Shown piece by piece: positions 4,952 through 57,544 of a DNA stretch of 64,000 nucleotides; position 1 is the first letter of the stretch, and every line of letters begins with the position of its first letter. Under the pieces are notes generated by a model. It was not told the origin of the DNA. It was given only the letters and a program-made list of their open reading frames with translations, and did no database searches. The position numbers were made by a program, and so were the translations under genes. Source of the DNA: Climacium dendroides (lineage: Eukaryota > Streptophyta > Bryopsida > Hypnales > Climaciaceae); assembly GCA_950106755.1 (NCBI GenBank), contig OX467089.1, positions 25,959,345 through 26,023,344 of the forward strand. Direction: 5' to 3'.

Positions 4952-5007
4952 TTAACCCCTAAAGGTTTTAAACTATGTTTTCACCAAAATCGCTCCAAAA
5001 TTCAAAG

Positions 5008-5051
<44 letters not shown>

Positions 5052-5319
5052 ATCCAATTTCAATTTTATATTTTTCTTAAAAGTGATTTTCAAAGAAATT
5101 TCTTTTGTTGCTTAAGCTGCCACACTTTGTTGAATACTACATATCATTCAATAACTTTTGAACCATATAGTCAAAAGTTATGAAAATTATTGGGCTTAAA
5201 AGATACTTCTTGGACACATGTGTGAAAATTTTAAAGAAAAAAAATAAAAATTCCATTTGTAGTGAGTTGTTCAAAATCTCTATGTTGTCAAAAATGCAAT
5301 TTAAGGCTTTAGGGGTTAA
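4952..5319. mobile_element. TTAA-flanked MITE, piggyBac-like termini (copy 1)
   Basis: The left end reads TTAACCCCTAAAGG and the right end CTTTAGGGGTTAA, so the element is bounded by TTAA with a terminal inverted repeat that starts CCCCTAAAG. The left subterminal sequence (AACTATGTTTTCACCAAAA) is shared with the element at 10,464. It contains a (TA)n run at 5009-5048. No transposase frame is present. TTAA target sites are characteristic of piggyBac elements; assignment to that superfamily is inference. Confidence 0.7.
5009..5048. repeat. (TA)n microsatellite
   Basis: Twenty uninterrupted TA units inside the TTAA-flanked element at 4952-5319. It most likely expanded after insertion. Confidence 0.95.
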
Positions 5320-9845: not shown

Positions 9846-10348
9846 TTAACCCCTAAATGCCCAAGGCACCAAAATTTGGTGTTTGCAAAACTTTGAAGTT
9901 AAATAAAACCTAATCAAGTTTCTATTTTTAGTAATTTTATTTTTAGAAAGTTCTTCTTGAGGTCTAGTTTTAGCAACAAAAATCTGATCTTGAAAATAAA
10001 TGATAGTGATTTTTCTATTCAAGATTTTGTGCAAGGGTACCCATTGTACTCTTGACTTCCCATAGTGTTGAGAGCTCTTGAAAATGAGCCTCAAATACAC
10101 TAGATCTTGAAGAAAAAGTCACATTCAAAATTCATTTAAAAAAATTATAGAGTAGATTTTAAGAAGCCATAAATCGATTGGGGTTATACATGTTAGGTCC
10201 TTTAACCTCATACTTTTTTGATCACCAACTTTTTAGATTTGACTTGTGAAAAGAAGATTGAAAGACTTGACATCACTTTTGCAGTTTTAACAATTTTGTT
10301 CAATTCAGAGGAAGAACTCAAAACAGGGCTTGGGCATTTAGGGGTTAA
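9846..10348 (-). mobile_element. TTAA-flanked element A (family A/C/D)
   Basis: Both ends carry the same 20 bases in inverse orientation: TTAACCCCTAAATGCCCAAG at the left, CTTGGGCATTTAGGGGTTAA at the right. It is related in inverted orientation to 11,001-11,442 and to the element at 27,463-28,124, and lacks an internal segment present in the latter. It has no transposase. The perfect TIR suggests a comparatively young copy. Confidence 0.8.
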
Positions 10349-11442
10349 AACAAATAAAATCTATGCTTGGACTTGCCTAGACATATTAGAGATCACATAG
10401 GAAAAGAAAACACAACAATATCACTAATGGGTTGAAAGACTATAATTTTTTATCATGAGGGTGTTAACCCCTAAAGGACCGTGACTATGTTTTCACCAAA
10501 AATGCTCAAAAACTGCCATTTCTAGTACAAGCACCAAATTTTAGAAAACAATTATTTTTGGATGCATCTAACTATAGGCTCTTGTGGTATACTAGTTTGG
10601 GAAAATGTGGAAAAAATTCAAAAATTTCCACCATGTAGATTGCAAGATATTAGCATTTGAAGTGACAAAAAACATACAAAAAATCAGGTAGCTGCACATC
10701 TTAAGATCACATTTGTATGAAAAAATGTCCAAAATGGTGGTGCTCCTTTGGATTCATTCTTCAAGGCAAGTTGGCTACATGCTTGAAAAAATTTTAGATC
10801 ATTTGGAATTGTAAAACATATAGGAAAAAAATAGTAAGTAGAAAGAAGTAGAGAATGATTCAAAATACAAAATTGTTAAGAATTTTGTTTTAGAATTGAA
10901 AAATGCCAATCTCAATGGTTGAAATGTTGTAATGAACAACCTACACGTACTTGTCTAAAATTTCTATGTTGCTGAAAAATGCATATTGGTCCTTTAGGGG
11001 TTAAAACCACAAAATTGATTTGAAGTCTTTCCATCCCCTTTTCACATGTCAAATCTAAAAAGCTGGCCACTGAGAAAATATGAGGATAAAGGGCCTAACA
11101 TGCATAATATCAATCAATTTATGGCTTCTCAAAATATACTCTACAAATTTCTAAAATGAATTTCTAATGCATTTTTTCTCTAAGATCTAGTGTATTTGAG
11201 GCTCAATTCCAAGAGCCCTTGACATTACAGAGTCAAGATTGCAATGGACACCCTTGCATAAAATCTTAAATAGAAAATTCATAATCAATCATTTTCACAA
11301 TCATATTTTTGATGCTAAAACTAGACTTCAAAAAGAGATTTTCAAAAATATAAACTACTAAAAGTAGCAATTTTGTTAGGTTTTATTTAACTTGAAAGTA
11401 TTGTCGACACCAAAATTTGATGCCTCGGACATTAGGGGTTAA
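10349..11442 (+). mobile_element. TTAA-type element C, interrupted by element B
   Basis: The two outer parts, 10,349-10,463 and 11,005-11,442, together match the internal and right parts of the element at 27,463-28,124. The right end reads CCTCGGACATTAGGGGTTAA. The left terminus of C is not visible; it appears lost at the border with element A. Because A is an inverted relative, A and C together form a large imperfect inverted repeat with arms of roughly 400 bases. Confidence 0.7.
10464..11004 (+). mobile_element. TTAA-flanked element B, nested in element C
   Basis: Termini are TTAACCCCTAAAGGACC and GGTCCTTTAGGGGTTAA, a 13-base perfect TIR inside a TTAA duplication. The flanks, ATCATGAGGGTG on the left and AACCACAAAATTGATTTGAAG on the right, are contiguous around a single TTAA (27,673-27,676) in the related element at 27,463-28,124, so the empty site is preserved in the window. 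Related partial copies are seen near 32,943, 41,580-41,755 and 19,990-20,330. Confidence 0.85.
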
Positions 11443-11977
11443 GATAGGAACACCCAAAAGCGCCACAATTTATTTTCTATACCAAACATACTTACATATG
11501 CACCCAAAAACATTACAACTCTTAAGAGCAATGATGGGAATTGAAGCATCTTTGTGCTTCAAAGGTGTTGAGTCTCATCACATGAGTAGATACTCAATCC
11601 TTTCAAGCTTTAAAATTTCATAAAAAATTGTGTGAGAGCCAAAAAATTACAAAATGACTTGACCTAGTTTGTCTTTGTGTAGGCCAGCATTTCTATCAAG
11701 TCATTGTTGTTCAAACCTGATTATATAATGAACAACAATTTGGGAACTATCATATGTGAAGGTCTAATTTGGCACCTGAGTGATAAAATTGAGTTTCCAT
11801 ATTACATTCTCAAGGGTCTACGTCACCTCAGACCATTCATAAGATGACACGTGCCACATATTTTCAAGAATGGCTTAATTTCTGCCAAATGTGACCTTTA
11901 CGTAGGATACGTAAAGGTCACATCTGGATTGGATTTACATTGCAAACATCACCCCTAACACCAAGTGTGAACAAACT
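11443..11977. other. Gene-free spacer
   Basis: No recognisable gene. It contains a perfect inverted pair, TGTGACCTTTACGTA and TACGTAAAGGTCACA, at about 11,889-11,921, which could form a hairpin, and a short poly-A rich part. Confidence 0.4.
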
Positions 11978-12423
11978 TTAACCCTCAAAACATTGATGAA
12001 GACATTTGGAGTCCAATGGATGATAGGGAATCCTACATCAAGACAAAAGTGCAACTATTCATCCTTGAATTTTGTTGTGAAAAAAGGAATTCTTTTATAG
12101 TAGTTTGACTTCTAATAAGTACTTTTACAATTTTGTAAGGAAATGATTCACATGGTAATCAAAGGGATGATTTCCATGGTCACCAATCCGTCCTTTAACC
12201 CTAGAACGTCGAGGCGGACATTTGGTGTCCAATGGATGACAAAAAAATCTTTTAGTGGAGAACATGAGTGCAACTATTCGTCTTTGAAATTTTGTGTGAA
12301 AAGGAGAGATCTTCTAGAATACTTTGACTTTCAATGAGTGTTTTTGGATTTTTATTAACCCTATGATTCCTACAATATCAAATGGATGATTTCGAGGGCA
12401 CTAGTCTATCATTTAAAGGTTAA
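11978..12423. mobile_element. Two TTAA-type elements in tandem (H1, H2)
   Basis: H1 spans 11,978-12,198 and H2 spans 12,195-12,423; they share the TTAA at 12,195-12,198. Both begin TTAACCCT, continue with GACATTTGGWGTCCAATGGA, and contain GTGCAACTATTC about 70-75 bases in. A third relative is at 24,699-24,926. The arrangement could be tandem duplication or insertion of one copy at the TTAA border of the other. No coding sequence. Confidence 0.7.
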
Positions 12424-12472
12424 ATCAATTGAATGAGAAGTCAAGGTTATGTAAAATATACACACATTTCAG

Positions 12473-13082
12473 TTAACCCTTAAACAACGAGCTAGTCATT
12501 GAGGAAATCATTTGTTTGGGTACCACGTGAATTGTTGGCTTAAGAAAAATGCAAAAGCACTCATTGGGAGACAAGCTACTATAGAAGACGTTCCCTTTTC
12601 CTACAAAATTCCGAGGATGAATAAGGTAGAACTACCCATTACCACATAGATTTGCTATCTAAGTACTTTGGAGAAGCTATTTGTCAACTCTCATATTTTT
12701 CAAAATTTGAATTGTTTGAAAGAAGTCGATTGCAAAAAGAATGAAGTGACATTCCGCGAAGAATTGAATTTTTTTTGTGATTTTTCAAAACTGTAATGTT
12801 AAACTGTGAGTAGACCCTTGTTGAAGCATGACGAGACTATTGTTGAAGCGTGGGTTGATGTGTCTACTCCCCAAGTGCATTGCCATCATGGTGAAGGATT
12901 AGTAGTAAGATTGCGGTAATAGATGAGCCAGTGATGGAAATGGGAGGAACCGGTAGGTGGCGGAATTGGGTAAATGGTGGTATTGGGTAGTTCCACCTTA
13001 ATAGTTGCACTTCTGTCCTGCATGGAGAGATTCTTTATCATTCATCGGCCGGAAAACGTCCTTGGTGATGTTTAAGGATTAA
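12473..13082. mobile_element. TTAA-type element J carrying a nested insertion
   Basis: Left end TTAACCCTTAAACA, right end TGTTTAAGGATTAA. The right subterminal region, read in reverse, matches the left subterminal part of H1, H2 and the element at 24.7 kb, through AAGTGCAACTATT. The interior is occupied by the separate element at 12,623-12,999. Diverged relatives of the J interior occur at about 18,020-18,315 (+) and 22,165-22,290 (-). Confidence 0.65.
12623..12999. mobile_element. AAGGTRGA-type MITE nested in J
   Basis: TIRs are AAGGTAGAACTACCCATTA and its inverse TATTGGGTAGTTCCACCTT. Flanks are AAT on both sides (12,620-12,622 and 13,000-13,002). H1, which lacks the insertion, reads GATGAATAGTTGCAC (on its minus strand), where J reads GATGAAT, element, AATAGTTGCAC. 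That supports a short target duplication, AAT or AATA. A 3-base duplication would fit a PIF/Harbinger-like element; this is inference. Confidence 0.7.
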
Positions 13083-17090: not shown

Positions 17091-18415
17091 AGTTCCCCCA
17101 AGATTCCTTTGCTATTTACAAGAGAAGCCAAGATTATTAATTTCTTCAAATAATGTATGTGTCTCTTCACCCACAATTCCATTATTTTTATAAAATTAAA
17201 TTATAAAATTGAGGGTAGAAGTGTTATTTTTAGTTGAGATTTCTAGAGACGGCGACCTTTTGGATGGCACTAGTTTAGTCCCTAGGTATGCAACTCTTAG
17301 AGACTTATATGCAAGGGTCATTGGCATTAAAATGACTTAGGTAAAAATTATTTCAAATTAAAAGGACCAAAAGTTATATAAAGACCAAATTAAATAAAAT
17401 GAGATGTAGAAAATGTTGGATTGGATATTTATTTAAAAATCTTTATAATGTATGTGAAGAATTGAAACACCAATGCATAATTTTTAAAATTCATATAAAA
17501 AGTTCCCTCCAATTAATATTAAGATTCATTTGTAATATTTTATTTATAATAAAAGACCTTAAATTTTTGTTAAAAATTCCAAAAAATTTAGATAGCTTAC
17601 GCTATGATAGATGTATTAAAAATTCATATAATTTTGTTTTTAATGTTATATTGACCTAAAAAGATATTCATTTTATGTATATAATAATATTTTTGGATTC
17701 CTTGTTGAAAGGGCTACAAGAGTTGTAAATCCTATCCTTGAAGACAGTTATGTATTATTTGATGTAAGAGGCATTTTAGAAACACATGCCCAAACCACAA
17801 ATATTGAATTTGCATTTGCCTTCAATATGATTGAGAATTTTCTAGAATTGACCCTACCACTCAAGAGGGCAATTTTTTTTAGCATAGTTTAATTTGTAGA
17901 CTAAAAACAACCCTCACTGTAACACCTTGAAGTTCATGGGCTCTATGGATGTAGAGGCATTAATCCTACAATTTTCCTTAGTGTAATTTGTAAAATCTCC
18001 TTATAAAGTAAACATGCCTAATACCAAGCAAATTTACTATCTAGGTACTTGAGAAAAGTTATTTGTGAACTCACGTGTTTTCAAAGCTTGAGAAGTTTGA
18101 GAGAAGTCACTTCTAAATAGAATGAAGTGTCCCCTCTCCAAGTGCATTGTCATGATGTTAAAGGGTTGCTAAGATTGTAGTAACGGGTGGGTGAATAATG
18201 CAAATGGGGGGGTTTAGGAGTAGATGTGGGAATTGGGTGATTGTTGGCATTAAGTTGTTCTATCATGTGCATAGCTACAATGCACTTTTGAATGGAGAAA
18301 GACCATATGAAACAATTGCATCTTTCTTTTGAACAAAGAAATCATCTACTTCACACCCACTTGCTTAATTCTTAGAAAATTCCCTTAAGGCCTCATTGAC
18401 AACATTCATATCATT
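17091..18415. other. Repeat-derived gene-free DNA
   Basis: 17,400-17,650 is extremely AT-rich. About 18,020-18,315 is a diverged relative of the interior and right part of element J (12,650-13,040): it shares TTTRCTATCTARGTACTT, CTCCAAGTGCATTG and GAATTGGGT in the same order. No supported gene. Confidence 0.5.
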
Positions 18416-21522: not shown

Positions 21523-22738
21523 AGCTTATCTATTGTGAGAGCTTTAAGTTACTACCCAAGCATATCAAAATTGACATATTTGGGAGGGCTTGTGACCGAA
21601 ACTTTTTCACCATCTCCTGTTGTGAAGTAGATTCAAGTTTTTGCTTCAATTATGTATTAGATAATGATGGGTTGTGCTAGCGGTGAATAGGTTATTGTAC
21701 ATAATTGATTGTATAGTAGAATGGAAGGATTCAATCATTTAGGCATTGGGAATTAAATGGAAATCACAACATAAGGTACCTTTAGAGGGATGATACCTTT
21801 TGCAATGTTATGTTATTTCATTGCAAGAAGGAACAACTATCAAGTGGACAAACCATTAAGCAAAGAGCATCAAAAGATTTATCTTTAATTTAAAATTTTA
21901 ATTTCTAACTACCAAAGATTAAAGAGCTATCCAAAGCAAATACCAAGTGGTGGTTGTGCAAAAGTCAAAGTGACCTCCATGTCACTAATGAAAGTCAAAG
22001 TGACCTAATTTGTATTTGAGAGGAAATTATGTTTGACCTTACATCGAATTTGACTAATTTGACTAATTTGCAAAAACAAACAATTGATTGAAGAATCATT
22101 GGTGTTGGTTGACTTGGGTCCATGCAACGTGAAACAACCAAAGATCATCAATCACTCAATAATTCCAACACCTATTGGACCCTCCCATTTACATCAATCA
22201 CCCACCCCATTATCACAATCTCAACTATCTTTTAGCATCATGACAATGCACTTGGGGAGAATACACGTCAATGTGTGGTTTACCCATGCCACACTTTACC
22301 AATTCAATCCCAACAAACTTTGAAAACACACAGAAAATTCATTTCTAGTTGGAATGTCTTGATTCTACTTGCAAATGAAATGAAAATGAGCCGTTCTCTC
22401 CAACTTCTCAATCCTTTCAGAAATACGCGAGTCGACAAATATCATATCCAAGGTACTTCGATAGCAAATCTGCTTGCTACTGTTTACTTTACAGCACCAG
22501 TAGTGAGCTGCCAAGGCTTGACTTCCGAGATGCCACAATTTGTTGAATGAAGCTCGTGAGAGGTTTCATTGACTTCCTGTTTGCAGTAATCGACAAGAAA
22601 AAGCGTCGAGTCCATGTGCGGGATTCCTGGCAGCCAGACGGAAGAAATCTCAGGATCTGGTAAAGCTTGCTGCCACTTGAATTGCATAAACGGAGTATTG
22701 TCGCAAGTGCCCGCTGACGGACCTGTTTTCAACTTCAA
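21523..22738. other. Downstream flank and 3' region of the ceramide synthase gene
   Basis: About 22,165-22,290 in reverse matches part of element J (CTCCCCAAGTGCATTG and flanking phrases). 22,360-22,738 is less AT-rich and abuts the last coding exon on the minus strand, so it probably holds the 3' untranslated region. Open frames on both strands here have no recognisable content. Confidence 0.45.
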
Positions 22739-25700
22739 TCAATCATCGTCCTCTGAATCTGTTACATACCCAAAATGCCACTGCTCTCAGAATTGAGGAA
22801 GAAAGACGCACTGAGCTCACTCTTATTTCAGATGGGCGTTTCTTCCAGAGAGAAAAAAAAACAAAAACAGTGCTGAAGGTAGCAGCACCCGTAAGTGTCA
22901 ATTTCAAGGTTTTGAACATGATGTCTATTATAGACATCCAACAAATTACTGGACCCTACTAGCTAGAGAAAAAGAAGGCCTATGCACTTTCAAATGTATT
23001 TTTTTGACACTGTGAGAATAAGTTGTGAATTTTTAAAGAACCAATTATAAGTGCATTTAATATCAACGCTAGGGTTTAACATTCAGATGTAGTACATCCT
23101 TGTAATGGCATCTATTCACTTCCACAAGTTTTTTCAAGATTTTAGAGGAGATGGTTATGGGTACAATGAGGGTTGTGGGTGTTGCTACCTGACATCACAA
23201 GTTTGCAAGCATTATGGACATAATGCTAAGTAGTCCTATTCTAATCAAGAAGAAAACATAGATCTTTATTTTTTTTATAAGGGCATAGAATGAGTACCAC
23301 AGAGGATTATGAAGTATAATCTTCTTAAGACCATTTTTGACCCCTCTCCAATTCCAAGCCCTACTTTGGTATCCATTTCCAATCTATTCATAATCCAATT
23401 AATAGCAAAGTCTAGTACTCACACTTTGAGATATTTGTGGATTCTCATTCCTTGGATTGCTACTTTTTGAAGAAAATTTTGAACAAGTCTAGAGACACTC
23501 ATAGGTGCCTACTACCCTTTCACTTCAAATATTCATAGAATTTTTTTCTTAAAATTTTAAAATAATAATTTTCTATTATATTTTTTTCAAAAGGCTAATC
23601 AATACAAATGAATCAATTATGACTCTTCATAATTAAAGGAGGACAATTTCCTTAAGGGTCAAGAATGGATCTAATTACCATGGTCAATGAGACAGTGCCA
23701 TGATGCATTGGATACTACACTTAGTAGAGGGAGAAATAACTCCAATCATTTTTCATAGATGGGATAAATTAAGAATTTGTTCATCTCAAGTCCCACATTA
23801 TGTTTGGACTTAGTATTATAAACTAGGTAATATGAAAGTAGAATCATGATGTGAAAAATAACATGGTTAGAGGCTAAACATGTTACTTATTTTCATAATA
23901 AAGATGTACTTTCACATGGCTGAACATATTCTAAATGGTTGGACCTTGTTCAATTATATTCCTCCAAAGCCTCATGTTATACAAAATAACATGCATTTCA
24001 TTATCCAATTAGTGACTCCCATCATAATAGAAATGAGTACCCTTAGGATTATGTATAGAATAATGCCCTAGATAAAAAGGCCCCACTATGACACCAAGGA
24101 TGAGGGCCATTAGGCTCAAGCTTGTATAATGCAGTCAAGTCCTTCCCATCAAGGAAGGCTTGATCAAAGGAGGCATAGTTAGAGCATCTTCACCAATTTT
24201 TCCCTATTCCTACCTCCATTTGGATGAAGGGGGAGTAGATATGGGGATAAGAAATACTCTTCCCTACCAAACAATGTTACTCTTTCCCATAGGTATAAAG
24301 AAATGTGGTTTTGAGTTCCTTTAACCTATTATCTTATACTAAATTGGACCTTCTCTCTCCTAAGTTTTTAGGGATGCAGGATCCTAGTGGATGGTTTTCT
24401 TCCTTCTTTGAATAAAATACATAACAAGGATGCTCTTATGCCCATTCGTGGCTCGAGGGTTACCTAGTCCATAACCAACTTCATCCCCTTACAAGAATCT
24501 ATCTAACTTATGACTTCATGGATGAATCTTGTGAGGTTATAGATAAACTATTGTCCTTGAAGATGAAACCTAGTTAGATCAATTAATGCACACAATTAAA
24601 GCTGGTTTGATAGATTTTTCTGTATATGTGTCACATATTTGTAGCTCACAAGCACAAAACAAAGTTGTAGAGTTATGCCAAAGGAATTTGGAGTTTGAAT
24701 GACCCTTAAATGTCCACAAGGACATTTTTGGTCTGATGGATGACAGAGAACCCTCTTAGCAAGACATTACTACAACTATTCATCCTTGGTATATTGCTAT
24801 GAAAAGGGGAGGTCTTTTACAATAGTTTGACTTCCAATGAGTGGTTTTGCAATTTTTAAAGCAAATGATCACATGGTGACCAAACAAACGATTTCCACGG
24901 TCACGAATCCGTCCTTTAAGGGTTAAGAAAAGGCTGTTCTAAAGCTAAAGAAAAAGTGGAAGCTTGACTCATTTCCGTTGACAGACTATGTAACAATGAA
25001 TGCTCTATAAAGTACGATGGAGCATAGATTTTCCTTTTCAAGCTGAAAAGTGCCGAAGTACTGGAATGCTACCAATTTAACAAAACTGATCTTCATTGTG
25101 GACCAACTCATGATCTCTCTCAGTCCACTTCAAATTTCGCGCCCCCCCCACACAAAAAAAAAGTGGAAGATCATTCCGCAAATTCAAAGGGGTCAGACAG
25201 ACAGACACACCTGATCGGACATCGTCGCTGACTTTGCCGGAGTTTTGGAACAGCTTCACCAGCATGCGGCAGATGAGAATCCACCAATAGATGTGCAAAA
25301 TAAACAGCATGATCAGAAGCGTGTTCTGAAAGTAATACTGGTTGAACTCTTTTCTCCCACCCAGGTCCAGGTATTGCGCCACCTCAATGCTGCCATGGCC
25401 ACCGCAAAATCTTCACCGAAATCAACAACAGTCCCACAAGCCCTAAATCGAATCTCCCCAATCATGAACGCAAACACAAAGAAATTGAAGTAGAAAGAGG
25501 AAGCGAGGCTTCAATCTTTCATGTGACCTTCTCTGGAATTATATCTCGAACATCTATCATTGACGGTTTGTAGCAGGCGTATTACACCTTCAAAGTATGC
25601 GATCTCTGTTTGGGGGAGACAGTCAAACCTCTTTATTGCGACCTTCTATGCAAGTGAGAAATACTTCCCCTTCCTACAAAAAAACCCTCTGGATCGGAAA

Positions 25701-28700
25701 TAGTGCATGTGTCATTAAAACCATTGATTTTGATTGTTGATTGTTGAGCAAGCGTTGTGAAATTTTTGGAATTGATTGATGGCAAGAATTGATTTGAATT
25801 CCACATTGCTTGCTCAATGATCAAAACCAATAAATGAAGAGGTTTAGTGGTATTCACACTACGTTTGATTTGGAGGTTTTTAATGGGACAGAGGGAGTAT
25901 ATATGTATTGTCCTAGTGCTCCTAACAATGTAGAAAGGAGATATGGATACAAAGACAACATTGGTGTTGCACTCAAATCTCTTTGATGTGACCTAAAGGT
26001 ATGTGCATCCAGAATCGACCCCAAAAATGCACAAATAAATGCATTTTGAATTACAATTTATAGCACACCCTATAATGTACAAAATGCATTCACTTGAAAT
26101 GACAATTCTAGGTACACACAATGGAGGAGTCATGCACCCTTGTGGCACTAACTTATTGTTGACAATTCGTACATAGAGTCTACCTCCGAAACGAGGAACG
26201 AGGCAGCAAGCTTGTGCAAATCTAGCTACCCATACCTGAGGTATGAGTGGTTGAATTACACCCAACAGACTCTCCATTCACGCTGTTATTGTTGACTATT
26301 TTGTATCACAGTTTGCACACATTGAATTAAATTCCTTTTTTGGAAGAGTGCTTCACTTTTATAAACAACTTCAGCTTCGGTCTCTTGTCAGTTTTCTGAC
26401 CTGATGCTCCAGATAATCCAGAAGGGGAAGACGATGAGCCTGAGGATGAACCACGAGAGGACGAAACAGCCAAACAACACGCTGGCGCCCACTTCCCTGG
26501 CCGAGTATTTGCACAGCTTGGCCCCCTCCAAGAACACGTCACTCACGTCGTGGACGAGCAGGGTGCTGACCCCAGCCCTGTACGATCTGCAAGCAAGCAA
26601 CGCAAGCACTCACCAACCTTTCAGTGGTTGCAATAACTTAATAATGATAGATAAAAAAAACTTCAATTGAAAGAAGAAAAAACATATAAATATAATGACA
26701 CATAACATAATAGAAAAGGCAGTGAGTGCCAAAAGCATGCATCCCATATTTAAAATTTTGGTGTAAAAAAAACAAATTAAAAGCTTTGTGAGTTGCTTAA
26801 GTTAGTTAAGAGGCAGCATTCCCTTCGCTCAGCTGGCTCATTCAGAACGTGTGATCCGAATTGGGACATGTCAAGTCGGTAGGCTTGAGGAACACTAATT
26901 GCGTGTGTTTTTAGTTTACTAATTGTTAATTGAAAAAGCATTGGTGTGTGTGTGTGTGTGTTGTTAGTGTCTAACTTAGAAGAGCTGCAAAGCACGGCTC
27001 TTCGATGCATTTCAATGGGATCCAGATTAAACTTTGAAAACAGACTGTGCTCACTAAAAAACAAAAGAAGGGAAAATCAATAAGTCTGGCTCAGAAAGAG
27101 CGAGACCAGGGAACTGAGAAAGAAAGGTGCCAACTAGGAGAGTGAAGAAATTGAACTGGATTGTTTCATCTCTCGCTCAATGCACTTGGTGGTTGTTTTT
27201 AAAAACAAAAAAAAGAACATCACTAGTACTTTCTACTAGTGCATTGGTGTTGTTTGTTTGAGTTTTGTTGTCGTCTGCAAGTGCAACAAACTTTATCAAT
27301 TACTTATCATCAAAGAATTCTCCACTTTTGGGTGTTTTTAACGTATTTTTCTGAAATGGCAACTTGTATGTTACCAATCTGCACGTCTTCTCATTTTTTA
27401 GCTCTATCGCCTATTTTCACCGAGACCCTGACAGTTTGAGAGTTTTTAATAAATTCTCCTTTTTAAATCCTAAATGCCCAAGGCCTTTTTTGAGCTTCTT
27501 GGAATTTGCTCTAAATTGAACAAAAAGTCAACTCTTTGATAAGTTTTGTCAATTTCTTTTGAATTGTAACCATACAAATTCAAATTAGACATAATAGAGA
27601 ACACATTGGAAAATGAAAACACAACTATTTCATTTTTAGATTAAAAGATTATAATGTTTGATCATGAGAATGTTAAAAATGTGAAAGCGATTTGAAGTTT
27701 TTCAATGCTCTCTTCACATGTCAAATCTAAAATTGAGGTCACTAGAAAATAAATCTAAAGTTGAAGGACTTAACATGCATAACCCCAATCAATTTATGGC
27801 TTTTCAAAATCTATTCTACAATTTTTTTAAATGACTTTTTATCATGATTTTTTCTCTAAGATCTAGTGTATTTGAGGTCATCTCCAAGAACCCTCAACAA
27901 TAGAAAATCAAGTCATTTACCAAGGAACACCTTTGCAAAAAAATCTTGAATAGGAAAATCATAATCATTCATTTTCAAAATTACGTTTTTTAATGCTAAA
28001 ACTAGACTTTAAAAAGAATTTGTCTATAAGAAAAACTACTAAAAATTGTAGCTTGCTAAGATTTTATTCAACTTCAAAGTTTTGTCAATGCCAAAATTTG
28101 ATGCCTCACGCATTCGGGGGTTAATATAATAGTACAATCACGAACACTTTTTCAAAGAAGAAGAGTGAGTTGTTGCACCATACCCATCAATGTAGGAGAA
28201 CACCATGAGGCCAATAGTGATGATATGGTGGGTCATCATAACTCCAAAATCTTTTCTCCTCGTTTCCCAGACTACTAAGGCCGCGATGCTGTAGACGTAG
28301 AAACCACATTGGAGCGCGTACAGCACCTTCAGCTTGAACCTGCATCCGTTTGTCAATTCATTGAATCCAAACCTCTTCAATTCGCTTCAATCCTCAGACA
28401 AAAAATTGCAAAAACTGACAGTGATACATTTAGAACTCCAAATGAAAAACTCTACTGTTAAAGCAACCTTTTAAGAGCTGATTGCAATTTAGGGGAAGCT
28501 TAACTCTTTGTAAAAAAATTTAGTAAAATTTCTTAGGGAGAAAAATGGAATTGGCATCTAACCCAAGTCGTTTCATATTTTTTTGACCTTTGTGGAATTA
28601 GTTACGAATTTTTGAAGTTGAAACATAGTGGGCATTGAAAGCGACCACCTCTTGAAATGTACGTTGCTGGTACATTGAAGAAAGCAAAATGTACCTCTAC

Positions 28701-32942: not shown

Positions 32943-33180
32943 TTAACCCCTAAAGTCCCAAGGCCTTTTTTTCCATCAAAACCTACTCAAAACTGCCATT
33001 TCTATTGCAAAGAGCAAAAAAAATTTAAAATTTAAAAAAAAAAAATATCTAACCACAAGATCTTGTATTACACTAGTATAAAAATGTGTGGAAAAAATTT
33101 CAGAAACTTTGACCGTGTAGATTGCAAGATATTTGCATTGAAAGTAAAGAAAACAATTTTCTCTTGCACCTTGATTGGCT
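32943..33180 (+). mobile_element. TTAA-type element, relative of B (right end not found)
   Basis: Begins TTAACCCCTAAAGTCCCAAG. Phrases CTCAAAACTGCCATTTCTA and TGTAGATTGCAAGATAT follow in the same order as in element B. A right-hand terminus was not recognised, so the copy is truncated or eroded. Confidence 0.6.
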
Positions 33181-34973
33181 AGATTTTTGGCTTTGAATCT
33201 TAACTAAAAGTTTTTGCACTACTGGTTTTGATTTTCTAATATTTTATGCTGAAGAATTGAGTTGAAAATCTGGGAAAAGAAATTCAACAAAAAAACACTT
33301 AAATTTCACTCATTAAAAAATTGTTAAGTAGAAGTAGATTCAAGATTGAGGGGATAACTAAACCATTAATAACTCTAAGATGGAATTGAAACACAATAAT
33401 TCCAGCAGTGAGATTGTTCTACCAAGCACACTTAAACTTGCCTAACAATTTTTCTTGAAAAATTGTTAAAATTGCATACAAAAATGAAGTTTGTACGTTA
33501 TTTTTTCAAGAAGATGCTTAGATTGCCTGAAAAATTAAGATTGTCTATAACTTTCTCATTACTAGTCCAAATGGAATAAATCAAAGCTTCAAATGTAGAC
33601 AAAAATATAGTCTTTGAGAAGAAAAAAAAAACTATTTTAAAAAATTTAACTTTCTATGATTTTTTAGAGCTGTCCCTCAAGTTGCTTTTTGGACTCATGG
33701 TGGCATAACTTTTATTTCCAGGCACCAATTGACATAAAAAAATTATATGCCTAAAAAGCTTATCCGATTTCCTATCTTCAAAAAAAGTTTCAAAAAATCA
33801 TGTCAAAAATTGAGATCACATGAACCTACCCAAAATCTTTGAACTCCCGCCCACAGTCTTCTGGTGAAAATCGCAAATTTTGTTGCACACGGCTCCTAAA
33901 CAAGCTCTACCGTGGTTCATTTGAGACCAGCCCACCTTTTTTCCAGCCCATATACGGAGCAGGGGGGCAACGCTCTTACACCAAGTGGGCAATGGCAAGC
34001 TATAAGAGAGTAGTTTTAGGAGAGTAGTTTTAGGACAACCTAAAATTGCATTCAAGTGATTCCACCACAAAAGGGTTTGATGAAAAAATGTTTTCCCCAT
34101 CCAATATAATAGACCTCCCTGAAATCATCCAAACAAAACCTCACAAATCAAACCTCTCGTGCATTTCAGGCGAATTTTGAGCGAGTATTGTACATTTAGC
34201 ATGTCTCCGCTGACATACTGGAGGACTACATATACTGTACACTCAATGCACAAGACAAATGGGCTTCTAAATCCACAATTAAAAGCGTTCAGTGTTCAAA
34301 GCTTGACATGTGTAAGTTATTATAGATGAGTACAGAACTTAGAGATTCTGAAAAAATTACAAAATACAGGGAACATGCAATCGGTCATTATTGAGGTCTT
34401 GATGTCACTTACTAACAAAGACAATCGAACGTGCAGTCTTCTGGGTGAACTAGAAAGAAAAACTAAATGCCTGCACGAAGTTCAAATACAACGTGGCCTC
34501 GAAAGAAAAGAGCAAGTCTACAATTGATACAACGCAGGACATCATCCATGCTACAGTACCACATTAATGAAATTCCGTATACAAGGAGCAGAGCTTCACG
34601 AGAAAAAACATCGAGAGTACGACACATGAATATAACTTCAGAAGTTTCTGACTTTACACTCGGGGTGACATGTGTCTGCATATGTGAAATAGAGTCAGAG
34701 AGTTCCCTACTGTGGCCAACAAGCCCCGAGAAAAACTGCAATATCCTGAGGTGCTAAGTGAGATTTCCCAGGAATCTTCAGAGCTTCGTTAGCGTCAACG
34801 GTTCCACCCCTTTGAGAATCCATTCTCAGATTCCTTGCTGTCACAGGGAATCTACGAGGAACGTCAGATGGTTGCAAGTTCTGCTGGACCTCCGCTACCT
34901 ACCAGCTTATGGTTCACATCATCCTCAAAAATGTTCACCACTGCAGTCCAAGAATGTACATGTCCTCTACACT
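33181..34973. other. Spacer and 3' flank of the TM9 gene
   Basis: 33,181-33,830 is AT-rich without a recognised gene. 34,150-34,973 is less AT-rich and adjoins the stop codon of the minus-strand TM9 gene, so part of it is probably 3' untranslated region. Open frames here run opposite each other and look like chance. Confidence 0.4.
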
Positions 34974-37900
34974 TTAGTCTATCTTCACGGCACCGTAGAT
35001 CACACGCACAAACCAATAGCAGGCGTAGAAGCCCATAGTTCCCGTGAGCACGAAGAAGGAATACGAGATGATTAGCATGTATCCGAAGTACAAGATCCCG
35101 GAAACCACCTTGGTGATGTCCAGCTTGGTGAAGAAGTAAAAAGCAGCGTAGAGGAAGAGATACAAGGCCGAGGATCCAGCAGTAAGATACGCCCGCCACC
35201 ACCAGTGGTAATCCTCGCTGCACAACTGGAAGTAGCAGAGCACAATGGTGATTTCCGCACAGGTCACCATGAGGATCAGGAACACCAGGAAGAGGAACCC
35301 GAAGATGTAGTAGAATTGGTTCAGCCATATTGAGGTCAATATGAAGAAGAGCTCGATGAACACAGCACCAAACGGCAAGATTCCTCCGATAAGGATAGAA
35401 AACACAGGGCGCATATACCAAGCCTGCTCTGGAACCTGGCGTGGGATCTTGTTGGTTCTAACAGGGTCGTCCACAGCAGGTTTCTTGAATCCAAGATAAC
35501 TGCCCACAAATACCAAAGGTACAGAGATTCCAAACCAAAGAAGGACAAGCGCGAACATCGTCGTGAATGGCACAGCTCCAGATGATTTCTGACCCCAGAT
35601 GAGAGCATTCAGTATGAAGAAGACAATGAAGACAGCTCCTGGAAACATGAAGGCAGTCTTGAGAGTGTTGAGCTTCCAGTTGGTGCCCTTGAATGCTTTG
35701 TACAGTCGTGCAGAAGAATATCCAGCAAACAACCCCATGAAGACCCACAGGAGAAGCATGGCTGTCATAAGTCCACCCCTATTGGCTGGCGAGAGGAAGC
35801 CTAGAAGCGCGAAAATCATTGTGACAACCGTCATCCCCAAAAACTGCACGCCTGTGCCAACGTAGGCACACAGTAATCCAGATCTGCTGGGTGGCCTAAA
35901 TACGTCACCATGCACCAGTTTCCACCCGGTTTCTTCTTGGGCTTCTTCTATGGATTCCAGTTGATTGTACTGTGAGATATCACGATGCAGTGTGCGCATC
36001 ATGATCATGGCTACCATGCCCGAAAGGAAGAGGACGATCATCAAAGAGTTGATGATCGAGAACCAGTGGATCTGGTCGTCTTGCATCATCAAATAAGTAT
36101 CCCACCTCGATGCCCACTTCACTTCGCTAGACTGAACATGAAAACATCAACACGAACAGGAACTTAAGGATGCAGAGATAGCAAACCAATCCATCTCAAG
36201 CTCCCAAATTAAAACAGTAACTCTAAAAAACACTCCAGGACTTTGATGTACTCTACAGTAGCATACACAATCAAAAGTCAAATTGATATAGGGGAACATA
36301 CGTGCTACTCGTAAACCTACACTTGAAGAATTCAGGATCGAAAATCGCTTACCTCAAATTTCACATCATAGGTAAAGATGATCTCCCCACCGGCCACAAC
36401 CTCCTGAGGAGGTTGATGATGAGAAACGAACACCTTGGCAGCAGGATTGCAGGTCTTCAACTTAGTCTGACTTTTGTCCCACGTATCATACTGATGTTTC
36501 ACACTACATCACCCACCACATCAATCAACTCAGCAGAAAGAATTGAACAAACCATAGGTGAACAAGCTTGAATCAAAACTACTTGACCTGTCAAGCAACA
36601 GCTACTTGAAGGTAAATGATGTACCTCGCTTAAAACAACTAAGGAAGACCCTTTGGCCCAATAACAGAAAAATTCAAATGAAATTGGCTGGGACTTTTTT
36701 TAACAATGGAAGGCATTGGGGATGTCTTGGAGAGCAAACCTGAAAGGCGACACCTCAAACCCAACAATTCGATAATCTGTAGATTCAGGAACTTTGTGGT
36801 ACGCAACCTTGAAACTCAGGTGATTGAAGATGAAAAACTTCTCTTCCTTCTTGTTCTGTCAAATAGATATATTTTAAGGACACAATCCATCAAATGCTGA
36901 AAAAAACTACTGAAGATAAAATTAAACAAATTGGAGGCATGAAAATACAAAACAATCAAGCACTCACTGTATCCAGAGACGCCTTAAAACCAACTGGAAA
37001 TCCTCGGTCATAGGTCTTGTAAGGACTTCGCTCACTCGTTCTGACCATCGCCACTGGGAGATTATCAAGGATCCTGCACAAAAAACAGCAGCAGTGGGTC
37101 AAAGGATGTCATCCTGAGCATATGAATCAGCAAACCTCGCCAACAAGAAGTCATACAAAATATGAATCAATCAAGTGCCATATTTCAAAAACAACAGGAT
37201 AAAAGCGAGCGACTCTTACATGTTCACACGGTAATCATTCTCGATTCGATCCTTCAAGAGCTTGGCAGACTTCTCCCCGAGCTTCTCCTTTCGGCAAACA
37301 ATTTTACATTGCTTATCGTCGTTCATTTTGAACTGCCGATGAACGAAGCAATTTAGATCATCAGCACAACAGGATACCGAGAATCCTTCACATCCACTCA
37401 GTAACAGATTTTTCATGAACTACCCAATACAAGCTGTTGTATTCTCATATGCAGAGCAAATTAGTACAAACTGAATTAACTGGTTGAGCTCATACATGAC
37501 CCTCACAGAAGAGAAGGACTAGAAAACTCACAGTATAAGGAGAATTTTCAATGCGGTCGCCCCGAAGAACCTCACCCAGATTCTCGGCCATGTTCTCGAT
37601 TTTCTCTGGCTTACAATAATCAAGCGAGTAGTATTCATACGGTAGCTGTGTCTTCGTGGAAGTGAGTTTATTCACCTTCACTTGAATCGGGGTACCCTGT
37701 TTCGAGCACATCCAACATTATGAATCATTCCCGAACGCAACACCCTTCCACTTCAATCACTCTGATTCATAACTCTGACAAAATATATTGATTTGGACAA
37801 ATGTGTCATGCACTTAGAAATAGCCCTTGACAATCGTGGCCATCATGCGCGAAAGTTGGGATCAAAGAGGGTTATTTTCTGGAAGCGCAGCGACAGGCAC

Positions 37901-50073: not shown

Positions 50074-51727
50074 TCAAAACCGAAGCTTGGAGAAAAACCA
50101 TCTGTTCTTGCCAGTCTTGAACCTCTCTTCCAACACTGCTTTCGCCCCCTGTCATCATCAACCACAAATACAAACATCAATATTATCTTATTAAACATTC
50201 TTCTCGATACACAGACAGGAAATCCTTACGCTGGCCGAAAAAAATTCCTGGAATTACCTCAGAAACTAGTGCTCTCAAGCCATATTCACATCTCTGAAAG
50301 TAAAAACCTACAGTCATGGCCCCAAGTGACTACTTCATAGTTACAGACAGATTATAGGTAATTGTTTTGCAGTATCATCAATTTACTCCTGTAGAGTCAG
50401 ATTAGCAAGATGTTACCTTTCTGGCTTCTACACGGCTGGCGGTAGACTCCAATTTCTCGGCAGTCACGGTGGACTTCAAATCCACGTCTAAAGTATACCT
50501 GGAATGTGCAAGATATACAAAATGAGGAATTGCATTTTACAGCCAAGCACGCAAGTCATTGACCAGGACAGACTTCATCATATGGAGTACACAAACACTC
50601 CAGAATAAGCACTCGTTCCACACGACGAGCGATAGGCCAAAGTGTGTTTGAAGTTCTACAAATTCTACAAAAGGCCTGCTTGTGACTGCAGAAACACTCA
50701 CAAATTCCCTGTAAAGGATGCCACAGAAACATCACCATCTCTACAAAATATGGAATTAACACGCTTTCCTTCCTCCATACTTGATCTATGATACTAAATG
50801 TTGGGTTATTGGCTGTGTAACAGTATCTCAACTCTCAATGAGATTTCAGAAATCAAGTGTTACTGCACATCTAATTTCTAACAATGCCCAGGGCATTAGG
50901 GGACCAAAAAACCCAGATACATCTATATTCCCACTTCAACGTGAAGCGAGTCGCAGGGAATACTAAGAAGTAAACGAGTACCTGGTTGGCATAATGTGGT
51001 TGTAGTTAACAACTTTCGTGAACGCTTTCAGTCTGGAGCGCTTGGCAATGGTCTTCTGGGACGCCTTTTTAATCACCTGCAAAAATCAATTAAACAGAAC
51101 CTCAGAAAAGAAGTCCCCCTCCTCAGAATTCAACTTCCATTTTTATATCAACTGATTCGTAGATATATCATTCTGAACAAACCTAGCGCCCCAAGCATGC
51201 ATTGTCGGCCCGATACATCTAAAGCTGTCTGAGAAGCTACTATCAGATTGCACCCAGTAATAGGGGTGTTGTCAGCGAAACTTTCAGGTTACTGTGGGCC
51301 TCCCATGAATCAGACGAACATATCACGTCAGGCTGGGATTAAATAGAGGCACAACCCTAATCACCGATATTCAAAACCTACTACAATCATCTGCGGATTA
51401 TTAAAGAAAAATCTACAAATGCACCAAACGATTGGAAACCTGTCAAGTCGTAAAACCTAAGACACTCACAGCCTGTCGCCAAGCCCTCACGTGCACAATA
51501 ACCTAAAACCTCACATGAAGAGGAAAATTCAAAGAAGCCGAAGGAGTAAGCGAGCTGCAGAGAATTTATACCTTGCGTGGATACTTGGCGATGCCGCAGA
51601 CGATGGCATGACCGTAAGGGCGCTCCTTGGTGCCATCGTCGAAGTTCTTGACGATGACAGCTTTGCGACCGGCGTAGCGGCCGTGCAAGAGCACGACCAC
51701 CTTATTGGCCTTGAGGAACTTCACCAT
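50074..51727 (-). CDS. RPL27: Large-subunit ribosomal protein eL27
   Basis: Four coding exons on the minus strand: 51572-51727, 50982-51076, 50417-50498 and 50074-50148. They join in frame into 135 residues, the usual plant length for this protein. The first exon encodes the KOW-type start ([19 protein letters not shown]). The second carries the basic [17 protein letters not shown] stretch and NYNHIMPTR. The third has [12 protein letters not shown] and the last ends [12 protein letters not shown], the diagnostic C-terminus of eL27. The product is a structural protein of the cytosolic 60S subunit. The start at 51,727 is chosen because the upstream in-frame ATG (51,823) would add 32 residues foreign to the family. 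No damage is seen, so the gene is probably functional. Confidence 0.97.
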
Positions 51728-54898: not shown

Positions 54899-55088
54899 TG
54901 TTCTATGGACACCAAATCAAAATTCCAATAAGGAAAGAGACCCCATATCCTATATTGGTTGTATGACTATCGTGTGACTTTTTATCCACTATAAATGAGT
55001 ACAAACATGACTCTATTTGGTTGACAAGGTAGCTTCCAACATTTGAGGGAGTGGAAAGAAGTCCCAGAGGACTTTCCTCAGTATCACA

Positions 55089-55322
55089 GATGATCCGAAT
55101 AAATCACATTGGTCAGAGTTAAAAGGATCACTACACTTTGAGCTACTAGAAGAAAGAATTAAGTGCACATTTATTAGACATTTTCATTTTCTTTGATTGA
55201 ATCAAGATGATCCGAGTAAATCACATTGGTTAGAGCTAAAAGGATCACTACACTTTGAGCCAGTAGAAGAAAGAATTAAGTGCACATTTATTAGACATTT
55301 TCATTTTCTTTGATTGAATCAA
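55089..55322. repeat. 117-base direct tandem duplication
   Basis: Two adjacent copies, each starting GATGATCCGARTAAATCACA and ending TTTGATTGAATCAA, with only about five differences. Confidence 0.95.
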
Positions 55323-55375
55323 CTAGCTTCATCTGCTTTTCTCAAAATGATGAATACAAATACACTCTCATCTCC

Positions 55376-55532
55376 GGGACTGTAGGCCCAACTACCTTAC
55401 TCAAGATGCTTCACACAAAGAGCATGCATCACAAGAAGTATGAGGACACTCACTGGGACTGTAGGCCCAACTACCTTACTCAAGATGCTTCACACAAAGA
55501 GCATGCATCACAAGAAGTATGAGGACACTCAC
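55376..55532. repeat. 79-base direct tandem duplication
   Basis: Two adjacent copies starting GGGACTGTAGGCCCAACTAC and ending GAGGACACTCAC, essentially identical. Confidence 0.95.
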
Positions 55533-55666
55533 CTCCCTGCAAGGTCATGTTAGAGGGTGACTGCTAAAGGAAGGAGGCAGCAGGTCACTGTAGGATTCGG
55601 ACCATGTCACACACAATAGCAAAGAATGCAAAAAAAGTACCTCTAGAAATATCATAATTTGGTGCT

Positions 55667-55860
55667 AGTTACATCAGATAGGAAACTTTCTACACAAAGA
55701 TGTTTATGAAGCTTTTCTTGATAATCCAATCCTTTAGTTACATCAGATAGGAAACTTTCTATACAAAGATGTTTATGAAGCTTTTCCCTTTAGTTACATC
55801 AGATAGGAAACTTTCTACACAAAGATGTTTATGAAGCTTTTCTCGATAATCCAATCCTTC
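55667..55860. repeat. 69-base tandem repeat, three copies
   Basis: Units start AGTTACATCAGATAGGAAAC. The first and third are 69 bases; the middle one is 56 because it lacks 13 bases near its end. Confidence 0.95.
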
Positions 55861-56059
55861 AACAACAGGCCTTGAAGAGCACACCTTGAAGAGCTTTGAC
55901 CTATGATAAGCTTTGACTAGGCCCTACCTATAAATCAATGTCCAAAATGTTCAACCTACATGTCTATGCCAATCCAGTTGAACATGTCTATGCCAATCCA
56001 AGTAATCAAAGCATGCCACCTATATGTAGCAACACAACATAACCATTACCAGAAGCTGA

Positions 56060-56251
56060 GTGCCAAGACTGAGTTTGTTGGATGGGTGGGTTTTGCTTAC
56101 CAAAATATCCATCTTCCTTATAATACCTTGACAAGTTTCTATCTTGTACTTGGCCGTGCCAAGACTGAGTTTGTTGGATGGGTGGGTTTTGCTTACCAAA
56201 ATATCCATCTTCCTTATAATACCTTGACAAGTTTCTATCTTGTACTTGGCC
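56060..56251. repeat. 96-base direct tandem duplication
   Basis: Two copies starting GTGCCAAGACTGAGTTTGTT and ending TTGTACTTGGCC, identical by eye. Because 96 is a multiple of three, open frames on both strands show a repeated 32-residue block; they are not supported as genes. A smaller 24-base doublet (ATGTCTATGCCAATCCA) lies just before, at about 55,960-56,002. Confidence 0.95.
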
Positions 56252-57544
56252 GAACATATCAGCATGACTGTATATGCCCAAAGCAATCCAATATAGATAA
56301 GATAGAAGCCTATTAACCCACTTCTAGGAACCATCCAAAGTATGCAAGCATCACATCTACCGCAAAGGAAAGAGAAATTGCTATAATGGTGTATAAAAGC
56401 TCATACATTCCAATCACAAGATGAGACTCCTGGGAATGCTTGAGACCATCATAAAGCAGCTTGACGAACAGAAATCGATAGTTCAGAAAAAAGTCAACCG
56501 ATCAACGATGTGATCTGATCTTATAGTATCGGTTGACTCTCTTCTGCACTTGGCTTCGACAAACCTCAGTTGTTTCCATGAACAACCTCAACAGCCGCGA
56601 GTCTGTGCACTTAGATAGCCTCCGCAAATGCACTTGAAAACAACAATTCTGTGACGCCAGATCCAGTTTCGTCAGAAGTTCAGGTCTTGTTTTGAGCGAA
56701 AATTAGGAATCCGACTGGCATCAATGAGAGAAAAATAAAATCTGTTGTGTTTATCAAGCTAGAAAGCTTACAACGAATCGCGTGGATTCAAAAGCCCCGA
56801 GCTTGTGCTCTTTGATGTTTCCCAAGGCCCTGCCCTGCAAGAACCTCTTCACGCTTTCACAACGTCCTATCCTATCACAACGTCCTATCCTACACCACAT
56901 AAAGCTCATCCACTCCAACCCCAAGACTACATGAATGCTAAAATTTGGCCCGAACAGAAAAAGCTTCCGTCAGCACACATACAATTCATGTACCAGCATT
57001 TCGCCTACATTCGAGTAATGTGGGCTCATCACAGAACTCAAGTTGTCATTGAGAAGGGCTACGATGGTTTCATGCATAGTTACGAAAGACTGCAAAGCGG
57101 GTACGATCTCACTCACTCATTCAGTCCCGATTTAGGTCTTGAACCAAATTCAAAAGATTTTCAAAAGAATTTTTTAAAAAATCCCCAAAGCACCAAAGGT
57201 CTACCAAATTGAACTCCAACCAACGCTTCCACTCCGAACACCTCCCCCACAAACGGCTTCACAACAAGAGAGATTCATGAGAGAAAAACCTCCTGGATGC
57301 AGAAATGCCAACAAGGTTCTTGAATGAAACGCTGATAATAAAGAATTTGTACATCCTGAATTTGAACCATAATCAGGCAAACCCCAAACTTACAAAGAAT
57401 CGGTGACCTTCACACGAATTCCCTTTTAGATCATAAAACACTAACACTTACACAAGCAACATATGACTAGATTCAAAGAGTTCATACATGATCATTCTTT
57501 CGAGATAAGAAGAAGAGCAACTGTCGATGCTCAGAGCTCGCCTC
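56252..57544. other. 3' flank of the V-ATPase G gene, no further gene recognised
   Basis: GC content is higher than in the repeat regions from about 56,440. A 135-codon frame on the plus strand (56,805-57,212) has no recognisable content and includes a short direct repeat (ACAACGTCCTATCCTA). The 3' untranslated region of the V-ATPase G gene is expected at the right-hand end. Confidence 0.4.

What the first reader, a model, noticed from the sequence alone, without database searches (positions are those of the whole stretch)
10349..11442. Nested insertion with preserved empty site shows a TTAA target duplication
Element B (10,464-11,004) is flanked by TTAA and has CCCCTAAAGGACC inverted termini. 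The DNA on either side of it is contiguous around a single TTAA in the related element D at 27,673-27,676, with flanks matching for over 80 bases on each side. This is a natural filled/empty pair within one window. Exact TTAA duplication is the hallmark of piggyBac elements (Sola3 is also described with TTAA). Such elements are well known in animals and some protists but are not a standard part of plant genomes as I know them.
Basis: partly seen in the sequence, partly recalled or inferred. Interest (0 to 1): 0.88.

Follow-up and report, generated by a model that had tools for sequence, protein, structure and literature searches.

The report
piggyBac transposon family in a moss
A short piece of mobile DNA in what looks like a moss chromosome belongs to the piggyBac group, which is best known from animals; the same genome carries thousands of copies of its end sequence and apparently recent transposase-bearing relatives, so the find is real and unusual for a plant.

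Summary
B is a 533-bp non-coding element (10,468-11,000) with exact 13-bp inverted ends between two TTAAs. D (27,673-27,676) and a D-like copy elsewhere (L006) carry one TTAA at the same site.

The genome (412.6 Mb) looks like a moss: a TM9SF protein in the window is 94% identical to its best named hit, Physcomitrium. It has 4,736 exact TTAACCCCTAAAGG against 4 for the reversed control. In 27 of 28 B-family loci with assignable ends, 43 of 54 ends abut TTAA.

The enzyme class is present: 119 matches to the piggyBac DDE domain. Several sit in 5-7 kb elements with TTAACCC ends; two pairs of copies differ at 2 of 4,103 and 9 of 5,363 bases. An end profile from transposase-bearing elements ranks B's ends first and second among 928 TTAA-adjacent sequences in the window.

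So B is a piggyBac MITE. Corrections: "C" is two D-family elements head to head, one left-truncated; B's own autonomous partner was not identified. Papers mention piggyBac in plants; no moss case appeared in the (capped) open-paper listings.

The parts
10468..11000 (.). Element B: non-autonomous piggyBac-type MITE, 533 bp, internally shortened relative to the ~900-970 bp family
   Evidence: none of the 12 ORFs of 130 aa or more in the window lies here
10468..10480 (+). left terminal inverted repeat CCCCTAAAGGACC
10988..11000 (-). right terminal inverted repeat GGTCCTTTAGGGG
10464..10467 (.). TTAA target-site duplication, left copy
11001..11004 (.). TTAA target-site duplication, right copy
10378..11442 (+). 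C2: D-family element, left end missing, right end ...TTAGGGG-TTAA, host of B
9846..10348 (-). C1: complete D-family element (inverted; TTAA + CCCCTAAATGCCC at both ends), lacks 144 bp present in D
27463..28124 (+). D: related element without the B insertion
27673..27676 (.). single TTAA in D = empty site for B
4952..5319 (.). another complete TTAA-flanked element with B-like ends (TTAACCCCTAAAGG...GCTTTAGGGGTTAA), 368 bp with the TTAAs
32943..33837 (+). left end TTAACCCCTAAAGTCCC and body of a larger related element; right end not recognised
   Evidence: (895 bases match an element in L069 at 72%)

Best explanation
B is a miniature (non-autonomous) piggyBac element. A piggyBac-superfamily DDD transposase encoded elsewhere in the same moss-like genome is inferred to have bound its CCCCTAAAGGACC ends, cut it out and joined it into a TTAA inside an older D-family element, itself of the same type, duplicating TTAA. 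Shown: single TTAA in two empty copies and two TTAAs in the filled one; the same end sequence thousands of times in the genome, mostly next to TTAA where that was checked; piggyBac transposase genes with the conserved aspartates between TTAACCC ends, two of them in near-identical pairs of copies with unrelated flanks. Inferred: that one of these transposases moved B (the direct parent was not identified), and the chemistry of cutting and joining, taken from studied piggyBac elements (recalled).
For: Empty sites: B against D and against L006, 2 of 2 with a single TTAA. Of 8 insertions examined there, 5 have at least one empty copy with exactly one TTAA: B 2 of 2, L009 16 of 22, L018 16 of 26, and weakly L007 1 of 1 (75% over 80 columns) and L011 1 of 1 (68%). 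Family: 4,736 TTAACCCCTAAAGG vs 4 control; 3,254 CCCCTAAAGGACC vs 1 control; among the first 100 places, 19 neighbouring ends face inward within 2.5 kb, 11 of them 892-971 bp apart, and 2 face outward. Enzyme: 119 PF13843 matches, best 6.1e-79; an 872-aa ORF matches piggyBat transposase 9c0f at 8.1e-33 with DE / DR / GVD aligned to its DE / DN / GVD; D542, D621 and D734 invariant in 8 of 8 aligned ORFs. Termini: TTAACCC on the 3' side in 16 of 20 sampled transposase loci and in 6 of 8 further 701-bp windows placed by that distance, against 1 of 8 on the opposite strand. The C37 element has CCCCTAAATGACC at both ends, 12 of 13 letters as B. A profile of 23 ends from 16 transposase loci puts B's ends at ranks 1-2 of 928 TTAA-adjacent sequences.
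Against: No transposase element with exactly CCCCTAAAGGACC ends was found, and B, C and D share no further sequence with the sampled transposase elements: the matches are to another short element in L069, apart from 42 bases of the 4,952-5,319 element in L042. 12 of 61 ends lack a preceding TTAA and 11 of 54 are not TTAA; some of the latter were probably mis-assigned. Empty sites of L010 (0 of 10 rows), L016 (0 of 1, CTAA) and L027 (0 of 2, TTAC) show no exact TTAA. One transposase-bearing copy (C35) has CAAT at one end and TTAA at the other. 4 of 20 and 2 of 8 transposase loci showed no TTAACC(C) end where expected. The end profile was built from ends picked by a TTAA-plus-pyrimidine pattern, so its first letters are not independent, and both ends of some elements were used.
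Confidence: 0.95

Rival explanations
1. Kolobok-type element: also duplicates TTAA, other transposase.
For: TTAA duplication alone fits (PMC9587614 passage).
Against: That passage gives Kolobok termini as 5'-RR; here they are 5'-CC. Transposases between similar ends are piggyBac by profile. No Kolobok model was searched in this genome.
Confidence: 0.02
2. PIF/Harbinger (Tourist, TTA/TAA) or Tc1/mariner (Stowaway, TA) MITE inserted by chance into TTAA.
For: In one insertion the 2-, 3- and 4-base readings cannot be told apart, because TTAA contains TA, TTA and TAA.
Against: 43 of 54 ends have full TTAA and 49 of 61 in a stretch of C1; a 2-3 base target would leave one or both outer letters free on each side. 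Ends match those of piggyBac transposase elements.
Confidence: 0.02
3. TTAA belongs to the element and there is no target duplication.
For: Both ends mostly read TTAACCCC.
Against: Empty sites of B still have one TTAA; the C35 copy of the 5,363-bp element begins at CCCC with CAAT in front while its 99.8% identical C3 sister has TTAA.
Confidence: 0.01
4. B and D are unrelated repeats and the match is a product of rearrangement, not insertion.
For: C1 and C2 form an inverted pair (446 bases, 81%), so the locus may have been rearranged.
Against: B is a member of a dispersed family with its own ends, and the break in C2 lies exactly at B's ends.
Confidence: 0.01

Closest known systems
piggyBac superfamily (Trichoplusia ni piggyBac; piggyBat of Myotis)
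   Same: TTAA duplication; ends starting CCC; DDE_Tnp_1_7 domain with three aspartates; sequence match to piggyBat (9c0f) 8.1e-33 and to the transposase of 6x67 2.3e-22; cysteine-rich C-terminal tail in 6 of 8 ORFs (read by eye). CCCT is the commonest end motif in beetle piggyBac elements (PMC12732532, passages).
   Different: The transposase elements measured here are about 5.0-7.2 kb with open frames of up to 1,045 and 1,101 aa, true starts unknown, against 2,074-3,465 bp and 500-725 aa in beetles. Host is a moss-like plant.
piggyBac MITEs of animals and of angiosperms
   Same: Short, non-coding, TIR + TTAA. PMC10004981 lists PiggyBac among seven MITE superfamilies in angiosperms (passage).
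   Different: The passages read gave no plant transposase between matching ends; here both kinds are in one genome, though the exact pairing is not made.
Kolobok
   Same: TTAA duplication
   Different: Ends 5'-RR (PMC9587614 passage), other transposase
Tourist / Stowaway MITEs of plants
   Same: Short non-coding TIR elements at high copy number (PMC10004981 passage)
   Different: 3-bp TAA/TTA or 2-bp TA duplication; here TTAA

Membership tests
piggyBac superfamily | TTAA target-site duplication | tested here: met
   Two empty sites for B with one TTAA; 43 of 54 family ends TTAA; 49 of 61 in C1:1-6.6 Mb; exceptions told in the Against line
piggyBac superfamily | short inverted ends beginning 5'-YY, often CCC | tested here: met
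   13-bp perfect TIR CCCCTAAAGGACC
piggyBac superfamily | DDD transposase of the DDE_Tnp_1_7 type present in the genome between like ends | tested here: met
   119 PF13843 matches, 12 of them covering profile positions 4 or lower to 338 or higher without a stop (my count); D542/D621/D734 in 8 of 8; TTAACCC 3' ends in 16 of 20 and 6 of 8
piggyBac superfamily | cysteine-rich C-terminal domain | tested here: met
   seen by eye in 6 of 8 aligned ORFs; the L049 and L058 ORFs end before it; Pfam scan of two ORFs lists only PF13843
piggyBac superfamily | B itself moved by a piggyBac transposase (same-family autonomous partner) | tested here: inconclusive
   closest end 12 of 13 letters (C37 element); no shared interior
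piggyBac superfamily | footprint-free excision | not testable with these tools
   the empty sites here are paralogous copies, presumably never occupied
Kolobok | termini 5'-RR | tested here: not met
   termini CC; definition from PMC9587614 passage
PIF/Harbinger (Tourist) | 3-bp TTA/TAA duplication | tested here: not met
   4-bp TTAA at 43 of 54 and 49 of 61 ends; definition from PMC10004981 passage
Sola3 | Sola3 transposase | not tested

The most novel reading that the evidence does not exclude
Mosses, or this moss lineage, carry their own diverse and possibly still mobile piggyBac lineages, with long 5-7 kb elements and extended transposases, which have seeded a very large TTAA MITE population. 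The near-identical copies would make it a natural, plant-adapted piggyBac system.
Probability: 0.45. Interest if true: 0.72.

Novelty: new member of a known kind. Interest (0 to 1): 0.6.

Why it matters
piggyBac is a standard seamless-excision tool in animal cells (recalled), and in the passages read its presence in plants is stated in a line or a table cell. A moss-like genome with open transposase frames, near-identical copies and thousands of matching MITE ends allows a direct test of piggyBac activity, silencing and origin (old inheritance or horizontal transfer) in a land plant, and may offer a plant-native TTAA transposon.

Tried and rejected
Kolobok, Tourist/Stowaway, TTAA-as-part-of-element and plain rearrangement were considered and set aside (see rivals). 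A search for the autonomous parent of B among the held transposase loci by BLAST failed; end windows of 8 more transposase loci were read: 6 show an end, none the exact B end, 2 show none. The last protein search, with alignment A1, gave only 4 short unnamed hits at E 1e-20 or better, probably because its words fall in the variable N-terminal parts. The first alignment of the joined flanks dropped both TTAAs by my slip and shows a false 4-base gap; one search shows the junction correctly. A first listing of ends was replaced. The whole-genome count of TTAACCCCTAAAGGACC, the genome-wide joined-flank search and a search with the 32,943 element never got an answer.

Rows dropped: of the 26 insertions tried, 12 gave a match across the junction; 8 were printed. 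L004, L005, L017 and L022 were left out because their matches are wholly or mainly to the same locus (L017 and L022 also have weak matches elsewhere). Some rows are double, since L001 repeats window DNA and other loci overlap.

Papers (PMC library only). The listings are capped (30 of 48 papers shown, 11 of 12, 14 of 15, 5 of 1,951) and only titles and the beginnings of abstracts were seen; none of those shown describes piggyBac elements of a moss or bryophyte genome. The top moss hit (PMC10619864) only uses 'piggybacking'. Passages of ten papers were read; no paper was read whole. PMC5381638 is not held.

Full report
What was checked. The window was read at B and D. B runs from 10,468 to 11,000 (533 bp) with perfect 13-bp inverted ends, between TTAA 10,464-10,467 and TTAA 11,001-11,004. 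D has one TTAA at 27,673-27,676. C2 with B left out aligns to D at 81% over 552 aligned bases. A search of the held sequence with the joined flanks found D and one more D-like copy, L006 233-101, both with one TTAA at the junction; the L006 copy is identical to the left flank for the last 14 bases, 71% overall.

C1, 9,846-10,348, is complete and inverted, with TTAA and CCCCTAAATGCCC at both ends; it lacks 144 bases that D has. C2, D-like from 10,378 to 11,442, has lost its left end; the 345 bases left of C1 do not resemble D's left end (score 12, shuffled maximum 17). C1 and C2 make an inverted pair of 446 bases at 81% identity. B sits in C2. A further complete element lies at 4,952-5,319 and a larger related one starts at 32,943.

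The family genome-wide. The window lies in G000:C38:25,959,345-26,023,344 of a 412.6-Mb, 123-contig assembly. B gives 47 matches (40 candidates scored of 6,266). Of 27 copies measured, 22 are 902-966 bp long, and B is a version that lacks some 380 internal bases: one relative, C2:5,336,341-5,337,272, matches B's positions 1-480 and 480-541 at its two ends. TTAACCCCTAAAGG occurs 2,351 + 2,385 times against 3 + 1 for the reversed pattern; CCCCTAAAGGACC 1,579 + 1,675 against 0 + 1. Of the 28 B-family loci fetched (B's own included; the best of the 40 scored), both ends could be assigned in 27: 17 have TTAA on both sides, 9 on one side, 1 on neither; 43 of 54 ends in all. Some non-TTAA ends there are probably wrong assignments (L008, L012, L013, L021). 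From the printed places, 49 of 61 CCCCTAAAGGACC in C1:1-6.6 Mb follow TTAA, 12 do not; among the 100 places, 19 neighbouring ends face inward within 2.5 kb (322 to 2,083 bp, 11 of them 892-971) and 2 face outward.

Empty sites. Of 26 insertions tried, 12 had a match across the junction in held sequence; 4 of these (L004, L005, L017, L022) were set aside because they match wholly or mainly their own locus. For the other 8 the junction was printed. Rows with an exact single TTAA: B 2 of 2, L009 16 of 22, L018 16 of 26, L007 1 of 1, L011 1 of 1. Not exact: L010 0 of 10, L016 0 of 1 (CTAA), L027 0 of 2 (TTAC). L007 and L011 rest on weak matches (75% over 80 columns, 68%). L009 and L018 lie inside other copies of the same family, so their empty copies are many but not independent; some rows are double, since L001 repeats window DNA.

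The enzyme. PF13843 (DDE_Tnp_1_7) gives 119 matches in the genome, best 6.1e-79, 667 candidates of which 116 were scored. Twelve of the 119 rows run from profile position 4 or lower to 338 or higher with no stop (my count from that table); most of the others have stops or are partial. Two translated ORFs scan as PF13843 at 1.7e-74 and 7.4e-75 and as no other family at E 0.001. The 872-aa ORF of C37 matches piggyBat transposase (9c0f, 8.1e-33) and the transposase of 6x67 (2.3e-22), with three aspartates aligned (that these are the catalytic ones is recalled). In eight ORFs D542, D621 and D734 (numbering of the first) are invariant; six of eight run into a cysteine-rich tail.

Ends of transposase elements. 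Of 20 transposase loci read with flanks, 16 have TTAACCC on the 3' side of the domain; on the 5' side, where the end often lies beyond the fetched flank, 2 of 20 do. Eight further 701-bp windows, placed by the distance seen in the first set, gave 6 of 8 in the predicted orientation and 1 of 8 in the opposite one. Both ends were read for several: C37:24,802,821-24,808,621, TTAACCCCTAAATGACCCTGG at both ends; L056 about 5.0 kb and L057 about 5.6 kb; C40 7,183 bp; C3 5,363 bp. A 13-position profile from 23 such ends (16 loci), scored on the 928 sequences next to a TTAA in the window (each TTAA read both ways), puts B's two ends first and second and C1's two third and fourth; D's degenerate ends rank 12 and 14. 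The ends were picked with a TTAA-plus-pyrimidine pattern, so the first letters are not independent evidence.

Recent movement. Two C40 copies of the 7,183-bp element differ at 2 of 4,103 compared bases, have TTAA at all four ends and unrelated DNA outside. C3 and C35 copies of the 5,363-bp element differ at 9 positions; the C3 copy has TTAA on both sides, the C35 copy CAAT and TTAA. The latter indicates that the element begins at CCCC and that TTAA is host DNA; it is also an exception to TTAA. Activity today is not shown.

Host. The TM9SF ORF at 34,974-36,146 (-) has Physcomitrium patens as best named hit (94%), after an unnamed one at 97%; among the 120 listed, Marchantia and Sphagnum follow at 89% and angiosperms at 88% or less, while the Ceratodon (moss) and some further Physcomitrium and Sphagnum entries, presumably paralogues, are at 86-87%. 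A LEAFY-type domain is present and snoR83, a plant snoRNA family (recalled), lies in the window. A moss is the best reading from one protein; the species is not known. B, the TM9SF gene and a rhomboid gene are on one 30-Mb contig, so contamination is unlikely.

Mechanism. Shown: insertion at TTAA with duplication for B, a family-wide end sequence, enzymes and ends of the same kind. Inferred: transposase made elsewhere acts on B in trans; cleavage and joining as in studied piggyBac elements (recalled). The direct partner of B is not identified: the nearest end differs at 1 of 13 letters (C37), and B, C and D share no interior with the held transposase loci. The surroundings of only 34 of the 119 transposase places were fetched.

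What is known. [quoted passage not shown] PMC8086355, PMC10140906 and PMC10813416 (passages) name plants among hosts in general terms. PMC4438587 lists PiggyBac among superfamilies found in all groups studied, land plants being one of them (passages). PMC6890710 tabulates 1,230 PiggyBac entries in the C-fern (passage). PMC10794571 and PMC10004981 name PiggyBac among plant or angiosperm superfamilies (passages). Ten searches of the open PMC library, with capped listings, showed no title or abstract beginning on piggyBac in mosses; subscription papers and repeat databases were not searched. Among the 32 and 4 hits of two protein searches no named plant appears; transposon genes are often masked in annotations, so this is weak.

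Verdict. Observation confirmed, interpretation supported. A known kind of element in a little-described host, with an unusually complete set of evidence in one genome.

Noticed in passing
9846-11442: Two D-family elements head to head (C1 and C2) form an inverted repeat of 446 bases at 81% identity, a natural foldback with B in one arm.
   Followed up: partly
11969-13028, 18003-18298, 22126-22491, 24702-24937: A further group of related repeats with TTAACCCT-like ends (12195 +, 12473 +, 24926 -), probably another TTAA MITE family; 12473-13082 could be one complete element (10 of 13 TIR letters).
   Followed up: partly
L053/L074 and L054/L075 (C3 and C35 copies, 5363 bp): All 9 differences between the two copies are C/T on the same strand, none G/A, as if one strand were preferentially deaminated; n is small.
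   Followed up: no
L054 3' end (C35:about 4423811): Transposase-bearing copy with CAAT instead of TTAA at one end: a non-canonical target or later change.
   Followed up: partly
window 10468-10480: The TIR contains CCCTAAA, the plant telomere unit (recalled); probably coincidence, since transposase ends vary at these letters.
   Followed up: no
55083-56252: Four two-copy tandem duplications of 56-117 bp, 95-100% matching, within 1.2 kb.
   Followed up: no
51223-51339: snoR83 H/ACA snoRNA on the minus strand.
   Followed up: no
G000 C34, C38, C2, C41, C3: Five SAM_LFY (LEAFY) domain matches, one strong and four weaker.
   Followed up: no
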